The notes under the pieces: model-generated
The model's database searches: none
The model's input: only the letters and a program-made list of their open reading frames with translations
Told to the model about the DNA's origin: nothing
Made by a program: the position numbers and the translations under genes
Shown: positions 51,096 to 53,965 of the stretch, in pieces
Position numbering within the stretch: the first letter of the stretch is position 1
Layout: the number at the start of each line of letters is the position of its first letter
NCBI RefSeq assembly: GCF_000421565.1
Contig: NZ_ATXG01000001.1
Coordinates: forward strand, 620,001-684,000
DNA: 64,000 nucleotides
Source: Agromyces subbeticus DSM 16689
GTDB taxonomy: Bacteria; Actinomycetota; Actinomycetes; Actinomycetales; Microbacteriaceae
Direction of reading: 5' to 3'

Positions 51096-51188
51096 GCAGC
51101 TGTGAGAATGCCGGGTCGTGGCATCCGCTCGATCGCTTCAACCTCGCGCCGGGCTCGGCGGCGCCGTGGCCGCCCGCGCGATCACCCG

Positions 51189-51216
51189 TCGACAGCGGCG
51201 GGGTGCGCAGTAGGAT
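51189..51216 (+). promoter_or_regulatory. promoter of the cystathionine operon and its leaderless upstream ORF
   Basis: TCGACA (51189-51194) and TAGGAT (51211-51216) are separated by 16 bp. The start expected 6-7 nt after the -10 falls on the GTG of the small ORF at 51223, giving a leaderless transcript whose first codon is that GTG. Confidence 0.7.
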
Positions 51217-51222
51217 GGCCAG

Positions 51223-51249
51223 GTGATCCTCGAGCTGTGTTGTCGCTGA
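51223..51249 (+). CDS. Cys-Cys upstream ORF (putative cysteine-sensing leader peptide)
   Basis: GTG followed by seven codons and TGA encodes MILELCCR, with two consecutive Cys codons (TGT TGT) just before Arg and the stop. It has no Shine-Dalgarno site, but its GTG coincides with the expected transcription start of the promoter at 51189-51216. Leaderless short ORFs with Cys runs upstream of sulfur genes act as cysteine-responsive attenuators in mycobacteria. The gene 90 bp downstream is cystathionine beta-synthase, a cysteine-metabolism gene. I infer the same type of control here: slow decoding of Cys codons when cysteinyl-tRNA is low would alter downstream translation or transcription. Confidence 0.68.
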   Translation: MILELCCR

Positions 51250-51338
51250 CGCCGACGTCGACCGACCCAGCACGCCCGATCGTTCGCCGCTCTCGTCCGC
51301 CCACGAAGCGGGCCGAGCCGACCAGCTAGGACACCAGC

Positions 51339-52706
<1,368 letters not shown>

Positions 52707-52750: not shown

Positions 52751-53965
52751 ATGCACGACAACGCCCGCTTCGACACCCGCGCGATCCACGCCGGGCAGGA
52801 GTTCGACCCGACGACCGGCGCGGTGATCCCGCCCATCTACGCCACCTCGACCTACGTGCAAGACGGCATCGGCGGGCTACGCGGCGGTTACGAGTACTCG
52901 CGCGGCGGCAATCCGACCCGCACCGCGCTCGAGACGCAGCTCGCGGCGCTCGAGGGTGGCGCCACCGGCCTGTCGTTCGCCTCGGGCCTCGCGGCCGAAG
53001 ACGCCCTGCTGCGCACGCTCCTCGCGCCCGGCGACCACGTCGTGATCGGCAACGACGTCTACGGCGGCACCCACCGGCTCATCCGCCGGGTGCACGGCGC
53101 GTGGGGCGTGCGGCACACGACGGTCGACACGAGCGACCTCGACGCGGTGCGCGGGGCGATCGAGCCTGGCACGAAGGTGCTGTGGATCGAGACGCCGTCG
53201 AATCCCCTGATGAAGATCTCGGATGTCGCGGCGCTCGCCGAGCTCGGCCGGGCGGCGGGCCTGCTCGTGGTCGTCGACAACACGTTCGCCTCACCCGCGC
53301 TGCAGCAGCCCCTCGCGCTCGGCGCCGACGTCGTGGTGCACTCGACGACGAAGTACCTCGGCGGCCACTCCGATGTCGTCGGCGGCGCCCTCGTGTTCGC
53401 AGCCGGGCTCGGCGACGCGCCCGGCGTCGGTGCCGGCTCCGGTCGCACCGAACTCGCCGACCTCGCCGAGCGCGTGACGTTCACCCAGTTCGCGGCGGGG
53501 GCGGTTTCGGGCCCGTTCGACGCGTTCCTCACCTCGCGCGGCATCAAGACCCTTGGCGTGCGCATGGAGCGGCACAGCTCGAACGCCCTCGCGATCGCGC
53601 GACGTCTCGAGGAGCACGCCGGCATCGAGCGCGTCTTCTACCCCGGGCTCGAGTCGCACCCCGGCCACGAGCTCGCCGCCCGGCAGATGTCGGGCTTCGG
53701 AGGCATGCTCTCGATCGCGCTCGCCGGTGGCGGGGCGGCGGCGCGGCGCTTCGCCGAGTCGACCGAGTTGTTCCAGCTGGCAGAGTCGCTCGGCGGCGTC
53801 GAATCGCTCGTGAACTATCCCTCCGAGATGACGCACGCTTCGGTGAAGGGCACCGAAGCCGAGGTGCCCGAGTCGATCGTGCGGCTCTCGGTCGGCATCG
53901 AAGACGTCGACGACCTGCTCGCCGACATCGACGGGGCGCTCGCGCGGCTGGCGTCGGTCGAGTAG
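52751..53965 (+). CDS. cystathionine gamma-synthase/gamma-lyase (Cys/Met metabolism PLP enzyme)
   Basis: A 404-residue enzyme of the Cys/Met-metabolism PLP family. Lys201 in HSTTKYLGGHSD forms the aldimine. YEYSRGGNPTR contacts the phosphate of the neighbouring subunit, and IETPSNPLMKI is the conserved strand. Motifs do not separate gamma-synthase (MetB) from gamma-lyase (Cth). Pairing with cystathionine beta-synthase favours lyase action, cystathionine to cysteine. AGGAG precedes the ATG at 52751. The stop TAG is formed inside a dispersed repeat (GTCGAGTAG). Confidence 0.92.
   Translation: MHDNARFDTRAIHAGQEFDPTTGAVIPPIYATSTYVQDGIGGLRGGYEYSRGGNPTRTALETQLAALEGGATGLSFASGLAAEDALLRTLLAPGDHVVIGNDVYGGTHRLIRRVHGAWGVRHTTVDTSDLDAVRGAIEPGTKVLWIETPSNPLMKISDVAALAELGRAAGLLVVVDNTFASPALQQPLALGADVVVHSTTKYLGGHSDVVGGALVFAAGLGDAPGVGAGSGRTELADLAERVTFTQFAAGAVSGPFDAFLTSRGIKTLGVRMERHSSNALAIARRLEEHAGIERVFYPGLESHPGHELAARQMSGFGGMLSIALAGGGAAARRFAESTELFQLAESLGGVESLVNYPSEMTHASVKGTEAEVPESIVRLSVGIEDVDDLLADIDGALARLASVE

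What the first reader, a model, noticed from the sequence alone, without database searches (positions are those of the whole stretch)
51189..51338. Leaderless Cys-Cys upstream ORF as a likely cysteine-responsive switch of cystathionine beta-synthase
Seen: a -35/-10 pair (TCGACA, 16 bp, TAGGAT) places the transcript start at a GTG whose frame reads MILELCCR-stop, 90 bp before cystathionine beta-synthase. Known: leaderless Cys-rich short ORFs in mycobacteria attenuate cysteine-pathway operons. Inferred: this is an independent occurrence in a Microbacteriaceae-like genome, in front of transsulfuration genes rather than sulfate assimilation genes. The MILELCCR sequence may be a recognisable conserved leader peptide.
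Basis: partly seen in the sequence, partly recalled or inferred. Interest (0 to 1): 0.8.

Follow-up and report, generated by a model that had tools for sequence, protein, structure and literature searches.

The report
Tiny cysteine-sensing leader gene
In front of a gene for cysteine synthesis in an Agromyces-like bacterium lies an eight-codon gene with two cysteine codons near its end; tiny genes of this kind stand before the same gene in 55 of 59 genomes compared from its genus, and it likely works as a switch, in which a ribosome stalled there when cysteine runs out would be predicted to turn the larger gene on.

Summary
In detail: TCGACA, 16 bp, TAGGAT, 6 nt, then GTG ATC CTC GAG CTG TGT TGT CGC TGA (51223-51249), 89 nt before cbs. 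It is not chance: a leaderless-type uORF with two or more Cys codons precedes cbs in 55 of 59 same-genus loci and in 29 of 85 sampled loci (14 of 53 genera) from the rest of the family. In 84 such uORFs Cys is UGU 192, UGC 19; in 30 cbs genes 1 and 60. Of the other 56 family loci, 37 have cbs itself leaderless; none shows both designs. Of 64 class-wide loci outside the family none has the uORF; three named loci outside it do. Best reading: a cysteine-responsive, ribosome-mediated attenuator like those of mycobacteria, most likely hiding the cbs start with the Cys tract. Tract-RBS complementarity beats permuted pairs, but a folding control is not specific, and Rho-dependent termination stays open. 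A Cys leader peptide before cbs was predicted for Bifidobacterium longum in 2005, so this is a well-conserved new member of a known kind. Cysteine response is untested.

The parts
51189..51194 (+). -35 box TCGACA
   Evidence: 9 of 12 consensus matches with the -10; over 81 distinct class A promoters the best -35 match is 4 or more of 6 in 32%, against 5.8% in shuffles
51211..51216 (+). -10 box TAGGAT, 6 nt before the uORF start
   Evidence: TANNNT 6-8 nt before the start in the relatives that the rule accepts
51223..51249 (+). leaderless-type uORF GTG ATC CTC GAG CTG TGT TGT CGC TGA (MILELCCR)
   Evidence: a uORF of this kind in 55 of 59 genus loci
51238..51243 (+). two consecutive TGT cysteine codons, the predicted stall site
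   Evidence: TGT 192 to TGC 19 in 84 related uORFs
51234..51241 (+). 5' arm of the predicted sequestering helix (GCUGUGUU)
   Evidence: minimum-free-energy fold, (prediction only)
51250..51338 (+). untranslated leader between uORF stop and cbs; no intrinsic terminator found by a simple scan
51328..51331 (+). Shine-Dalgarno-like AGGA of cbs, 7 nt before the ATG
51330..51338 (+). 3' arm of the predicted sequestering helix (GACA-c-CAGC), overlapping the SD and reaching the cbs ATG
   Evidence: prediction only
51339..52706 (+). cbs, cystathionine beta-synthase, 455 aa
   Evidence: (TIGR01137)
52751..53965 (+). metB-like cystathionine gamma-synthase/lyase gene, likely same operon (44-nt gap)
   Evidence: (NF005871)

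Best explanation
The eight-codon reading frame with two cysteine codons in front of cbs is likely a cysteine-responsive attenuator: when charged tRNA-Cys is short, a ribosome that would start directly at the 5' end of the transcript is predicted to stall on the UGU-UGU pair and so free the start region of cbs for translation. Shown by sequence: the leaderless-type promoter spacing, the in-frame Cys codons followed by Arg and stop, their conservation before cbs, the inverted Cys codon choice, and no intrinsic terminator found by a simple scan. Inferred: with enough cysteine the ribosome finishes and leaves, the Cys tract (GCUGUGUU in the window) pairs with the stretch from the SD to the ATG of cbs, and cbs-metB is kept low. 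With too little, the stalled ribosome covers the tract and the RBS opens. Rho may in addition terminate the untranslated message. UGU rather than UGC is perhaps chosen because it pairs better with the A-rich RBS region, or because it is read by G-U wobble and is slower, or both.
For: Conservation: 55 of 59 genus loci (54 Cys-Cys, one Cys-Arg-Cys) and 29 of 85 other-genus family loci in 14 of 53 genera. Frame test: 54 of 59 in frame 0. 68 of 84 uORFs end C-R-stop or C-R-R-stop, and stops vary (TGA 67, TAG 16, TAA 1). Cys codons TGT 192: TGC 19 in 84 uORFs against 1:60 in 30 genus cbs genes, 1:17 in 18 other-genus cbs genes and 11:79 in 37 long window ORFs, while uORF codons other than Cys and Arg keep G or C at position 3 (319 of 373). 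Tract-to-own-RBS complementarity exceeds permuted partners: n=50 dereplicated, p=0.0006 and 0.0004 with a 9-nt flank, 0.008 and 0.011 with a 6-nt flank; two mid-leader control regions with the 6-nt flank give 0.39 and 0.18 (helix score) and 0.08 and 0.06 (energy). Changes on both sides that keep pairing are seen by eye: CTG with CAG or CGG, CGG with CCG, GCC with GGC, next to TGT-ACA. In the window, blocking the tract raises predicted RBS openness from 0.22 to 0.48, and TGT to TGC raises the free state to 0.39; over 44 representatives TGT to TGC raises it from 0.404 to 0.442 (p=0.03). Precedent: cysteine-dependent translation control by polycysteine leaderless short ORFs in M. smegmatis (Canestrari 2020, not held; told in passages of PMC9031893 and PMC13236596).
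Against: No transcript start, expression or cysteine data exist here. The window leader is not unusually stable (z -0.40). RBS opening on blocking is general (36 of 44 representatives) but nearly as large after tail swap (0.155 against 0.120, p=0.23), and the free state is no more closed than with swapped tails (0.404 against 0.411, p=0.63), so the fold itself is not specific. In one search, of 77 loci 37 open by more than 0.1 but 8 close by more than 0.1. With a 3-nt flank the permutation test weakens (p 0.03-0.15). Against shuffled tails complementarity averages only z -0.27 over 84 loci (17 below -1, 10 above +1). A helix score of 6 or more with a standard tract is met by 43% of 69 distinct class A tails, but also by 26% of 39 SD-led window starts and 17% of 18 class C tails. 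L117, L160, L166 and L195 show no run over 5 pairs. Four of 59 genus loci have lost the Cys pair. No other leaderless Cys uORF was found in this genome where I looked.
Confidence: 0.66

Rival explanations
1. The uORF is cysteine-responsive, but control is by Rho-dependent transcription termination in the untranslated C-rich leader, as Seliverstov et al. proposed for cys and cbs leaders, and not by hiding the RBS.
For: Leaders hold C 0.45 and G 0.28, with C>G in 83 of 84, against 0.36/0.33 at -90 to -20 of 18 of the 19 class C loci and 0.36/0.34 in 30 cbs genes. No intrinsic terminator found. The 2005 proposal, which its authors call rather weak, was read in section 6.
Against: The transcribed cbs-metB gap has the same skew (C 0.41, G 0.24; C>G in 47 of 51 distinct gaps), so the skew is not special to the leader. 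A ribosome stalled on codons 6-7 covers little of the leader and would not by itself keep Rho off (reasoning, not tested).
Confidence: 0.2
2. The conserved letters are kept as an RNA or DNA element (protein site or structure), and translation of the Cys codons does not matter.
For: TGTTGTCGYCGCTGA is conserved at the nucleotide level with nearly fixed TGT codons, and part of it lies in predicted helices.
Against: In the frame test the Cys pair lies in frame with the start in 54 of 59 genus loci, against 13 and 0 in the other frames; stop codons interchange; CCRCR, CSCC, CPCC and CRC variants keep Cys codons in frame while the letters differ.
Confidence: 0.08
3. The encoded CCR peptide acts itself, for example as a metal or redox-sensing peptide, in trans.
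For: Cys-Cys-Arg is a strongly kept C-terminus.
Against: Residues before Cys vary, length is only 8-14 aa, the codon choice is skewed and not only the residues kept, and the place before cbs is kept.
Confidence: 0.04

Closest known systems
Polycysteine leaderless short ORFs of mycobacteria (Canestrari et al. 2020, doi 10.1111/mmi.14498; not held; seen only through passages in PMC9031893, PMC13236596, PMC9094748; that a stalled ribosome frees a hidden RBS there is recalled)
   Same: Leaderless start, contiguous Cys codons in a very short ORF at the head of a cysteine-metabolism transcript
   Different: Here it precedes cbs-metB; the mycobacterial loci named in the passages I saw are cysA2, Rv0485 and nirA (PMC4633059). 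It is minimal (8-14 codons, usually Cys-Cys-Arg-stop), with near-fixed UGU codons; one site was found in this genome, within the limits of the search
Cys leader peptides predicted in Actinobacteria by Seliverstov et al. 2005 (PMC1262725; abstract, passages and section 6 read)
   Same: Runs of Cys codons near the stop, before cys operons and before cbs of Bifidobacterium longum; no terminator
   Different: The text read does not speak of leaderless starts, and section 6 names no Microbacteriaceae, although Leifsonia xyli is in the genome list of the Methods passage (its family placement is recalled)
uORFC-8-2 motif before cysS of Rhodobacterales (PMC8632094, passages read)
   Same: Two tandem Cys codons in a uORF before a cysteine-related gene
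   Different: AUG start, Cys usually at codons 14-15, UGC dominates, and an intrinsic terminator stem; none of these here
trp-type classical attenuators (recalled)
   Same: Ribosome stalling on codons of the regulated amino acid
   Different: No terminator found

Membership tests
Polycysteine leaderless short-ORF attenuator | mRNA begins at the start codon of the short ORF | tested here: inconclusive
   -10 ends 6 nt before the GTG and the spacing is conserved; no mapped 5' end
Polycysteine leaderless short-ORF attenuator | Contiguous Cys codons in the short ORF, conserved | tested here: met
   Cys-Cys in 54 of 59 genus loci; 29 of 85 other family loci have a uORF with C-C or two Cys at most two residues apart
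Polycysteine leaderless short-ORF attenuator | Precedes a cysteine-metabolism gene with its own RBS on the same strand | tested here: met
   cbs TIGR01137, AGGA 7 nt before the ATG
Polycysteine leaderless short-ORF attenuator | RBS of the next gene hidden unless a ribosome stalls on the Cys codons (recalled feature) | tested here: inconclusive
   permutation test positive but setting-dependent; tail-swap folding control not specific
Polycysteine leaderless short-ORF attenuator | Expression rises on cysteine limitation | not testable with these tools
   needs reporter or proteome data
Actinobacterial Cys leader peptides (Seliverstov 2005) | Run of Cys codons near the stop codon of a short ORF before a cys or cbs gene | tested here: met
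uORFC-8-2 / classical terminator attenuators | Intrinsic terminator between uORF and gene | tested here: not met
   0 found in 51100-51400 by a simple scan
Known riboswitch or Rfam cis-element | Match over Rfam gathering score | tested here: not met
   0 in the window; two sub-threshold hits at the locus

The most novel reading that the evidence does not exclude
In Actinomycetes cbs is often itself leaderless (35 of 65 class-wide loci); in Microbacteriaceae the leaderless start was repeatedly handed over to, or taken back from, a Cys-Cys sensor ORF, so that the two designs replace each other at one promoter, and the rare, wobble-read UGU codon was selected as the starvation-sensitive letter. 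This would be a rule-like route by which bacteria build and lose amino-acid sensors in front of leaderless genes.
Probability: 0.45. Interest if true: 0.68.

Novelty: new member of a known kind. Interest (0 to 1): 0.52.

Why it matters
If true, it carries cysteine-responsive leaderless attenuation, which the papers I saw report from mycobacteria, to the transsulfuration gene cbs across a bacterial family, with many natural variants at one locus: Cys-Cys, single-Cys, uORF-deleted and leaderless-cbs designs. It also poses a sharp question that is easy to test: why these sensor ORFs turn the Cys codon choice from nearly all UGC to nearly all UGU.

Tried and rejected
A chance ORF was rejected by conservation and the frame test. 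A known RNA family was rejected. An intrinsic-terminator attenuator was rejected. A special, very stable leader fold was rejected (z -0.40). Consensus folding of two leader sets (18 and 23 sequences) gave few pair changes, all one-sided but one, so I rest on the permutation test, which is positive but setting-dependent (9 settings, two scores each, p below 0.0002 to 0.15). Folding with the tract blocked looked strong (36 of 44) until the tail-swap control gave nearly the same. The C-rich leader looked like support for Rho until the cbs-metB gap showed the same skew. Further Cys uORFs in the own genome were looked for with a sequence model (built with this site in it; only 150 of 4088 first-look candidates were scored; the 17 other hits up to E 10 hold no leaderless Cys uORF) and around sulfur genes: none found, but a uORF of another wording, a -10 other than TANNNT or an unscored candidate would be missed. 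Class C is likely over-counted, since many of its cbs starts follow a -10-like nAnnnT that my strict TANNNT rule does not accept (seen by eye).

Rows dropped or special: L105 (Cys-Arg-Cys) counts among the 55; L208 and L226 (Cys-Arg-Arg-Cys) count among the 29; L122 was class A only through a longer in-frame ORF and entered by a fallback without the promoter rule; L304 gave no cbs start; 7 of 84 loci had no SD by my rule; 11 uORFs longer than 36 nt and 20 duplicates were left out of alignment A1 (53 rows from 84 loci); L169 was left out of the class C composition; L030 has only 96 bases upstream of cbs.

Full report
What is there. The window lies in a 4.3 Mb genome of a genus that I infer to be Agromyces: Cbs is 88-91% identical to four named Agromyces records, and one genome of the genus set has a contig of the same length as a named Agromyces contig. 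The region reads: divergent DUF3105 gene, promoter TCGACA-16-TAGGAT, six bases, then GTG ATC CTC GAG CTG TGT TGT CGC TGA, 89 untranslated bases with an AGGA, then cbs and a metB-like gene.

Is it more than chance. In the 64 kb window 5 ORFs of at most 40 aa have this leaderless-type spacing, and one has Cys-Cys. Upstream of cbs in the genus, 55 of 59 loci have such a uORF, 54 with Cys-Cys and one with Cys-Arg-Cys (60 genomes searched, 59 with cbs at the threshold). The four without: L095 and L096 have kept a -10 and the RBS but lost the uORF and most of the leader; L143 has one Cys codon; L151 stops after one. In the rest of the family I sampled 85 loci from 53 genera, out of 174 other-genus genomes with a match: 29 loci in 14 genera carry it (class A), 37 in 28 genera have cbs itself leaderless by the same rule (class B), 19 in 11 genera neither (class C), and no locus is both A and B. 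Of the 80 best named loci, 14 are class A, including Leifsonia flava, Cryobacterium, Naasia and, outside the family, two Occultella and one Propionicicella. Class-wide, 155 of 197 genomes matched; I looked at 66 loci (26 that came with the search and 40 picked to spread over families) and 65 could be read: none is A, 35 are B, 30 are C; one of the 65 is a Microbacteriaceae.

Is it translated. Without asking for frame beforehand, the Cys pair sits in the frame of the start in 54 of 59 genus loci, against 13 in frame +1 and none in +2; in the rest of the family in 26 of 85, against 1 and 0. Stops interchange (67 TGA, 16 TAG, 1 TAA), and the distance from stop to cbs is free of frame (33, 26 and 25 of 84 in the three classes).

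Codon choice. In 84 uORFs Cys is TGT 192 times and TGC 19 times; in 30 cbs genes of the genus it is 1 and 60, in 18 cbs genes of other class A genera 1 and 17, and in 37 long window ORFs 11 and 79. uORF codons other than Cys and Arg keep G or C in the third place (319 of 373); Arg is mixed (CGC 91, CGT 54, CGG 12, CGA 6). In the cysS attenuators of Rhodobacterales UGC dominates (PMC8632094, passages). Two reasons fit: better pairing with the A-rich RBS, or slower wobble reading; swapping TGT for TGC in the folding model opens the RBS slightly (0.404 to 0.442, p=0.03).

How it would work. The predicted fold of the window leader pairs GCUGUGUU (51234-51241), which holds the first UGU, with GACA-c-CAGC (51330-51338), and pairs part of the ATG as well (not more stable than shuffles, z -0.40). 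In part of the relatives the partner is the stretch between SD and ATG: AACACGGC-AT with ATG-CTG-TGT-T, AACACCGG with CCGGTGTT, GACAACACGG with TCGTGTTGTC, AACAGGC with GCCTGTT. Own pairs beat permuted pairs in 9 settings, p below 0.0002 to 0.15; with the 6-nt flank the own-pair p values (n=50) are 0.008 and 0.011, against 0.06 to 0.39 for two mid-leader control regions. But shuffled-tail z averages only -0.27, and opening of the RBS on blocking the tract, seen in 36 of 44 representatives, is nearly the same with swapped tails. So I treat sequestration as the likeliest mechanism, not as shown. The Rho rival has a C-rich leader for it, a skew that the cbs-metB gap shares.

Evolution. On a tree of 107 Cbs proteins, class A needs 11 changes (4 forced by well-supported branches) and the three classes together 14 (quick method). 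A is clustered (0 of 500 shuffles as low) but was gained or lost several times. Since B is frequent class-wide (35 of 65), I infer that a leaderless cbs came first and that the leaderless start passed to the sensor ORF in Microbacteriaceae; this rests on sampling and a strict -10 rule.

In this genome it seems to stand alone. A sequence model of promoter and uORF gives this site at E 2.5e-4 (it was in the model) and nothing else below 0.15, with 150 of 4088 candidates scored. No leaderless Cys uORF lies near the cysK-like gene (named by eye from its sequence), the cysH-cysD region with its sulfite-reductase-like neighbour (PF01507 hits; neighbour named by eye), or the five strong PF01053 genes, of which one is the window's own metB.

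Known or new. Seliverstov et al. 2005 (section 6) predicted Cys leader peptides before mycobacterial cys operons, P. acnes cys and B. longum cbs, and named Rho as a weak possibility. Shell et al. 2015 (passages) reported leaderless Cys-rich uORFs before cysA2, Rv0485 and nirA. Canestrari et al. 2020 (not held) is told in passages of PMC9031893 and PMC13236596 as cysteine-dependent translation attenuation in M. smegmatis. Searches of the held library on leaderless, cysteine, attenuation, cystathionine beta-synthase, Microbacteriaceae and Agromyces listed, among the rows shown, no report of this element in Microbacteriaceae; the lists are capped and subscription papers are mostly not held. So: a new member of a known kind, unusually minimal, with two comparative facts that I have not seen in print there, the codon inversion and the exchange with leaderless cbs.

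Noticed in passing
L095, L096 (same-genus genomes), 180 bases upstream of cbs: A -10 and the RBS of cbs are kept, but the uORF and most of the leader are gone, and the upstream neighbour reads like the end of another coding frame (transporter-like by eye): a natural loss of the attenuator.
   Followed up: partly
L151 and L143, cbs leader: Natural variants with one Cys codon: L151 stops right after the first TGT, L143 has CGT in place of the second TGT; much of the leader is kept.
   Followed up: no
class B loci: cbs is itself leaderless by promoter spacing in 37 of 85 family loci and 35 of 65 class-wide loci; many further starts follow a looser nAnnnT -10.
   Followed up: partly
L043: A record titled Sporosarcina beigongshangi (Bacillota) holds a Cbs that groups with Arthrobacter in the tree, probably a mislabelled or contaminated assembly.
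   Followed up: no
L089, cbs leader: UUGUCGCUGACGC, the end of the Cys tract with the stop and what follows, stands three times in tandem here, a possible recent duplication.
   Followed up: no
window:50368-51054 (-): Divergent gene of unknown function (DUF3105, PF11303) shares the upstream region with cbs.
   Followed up: no
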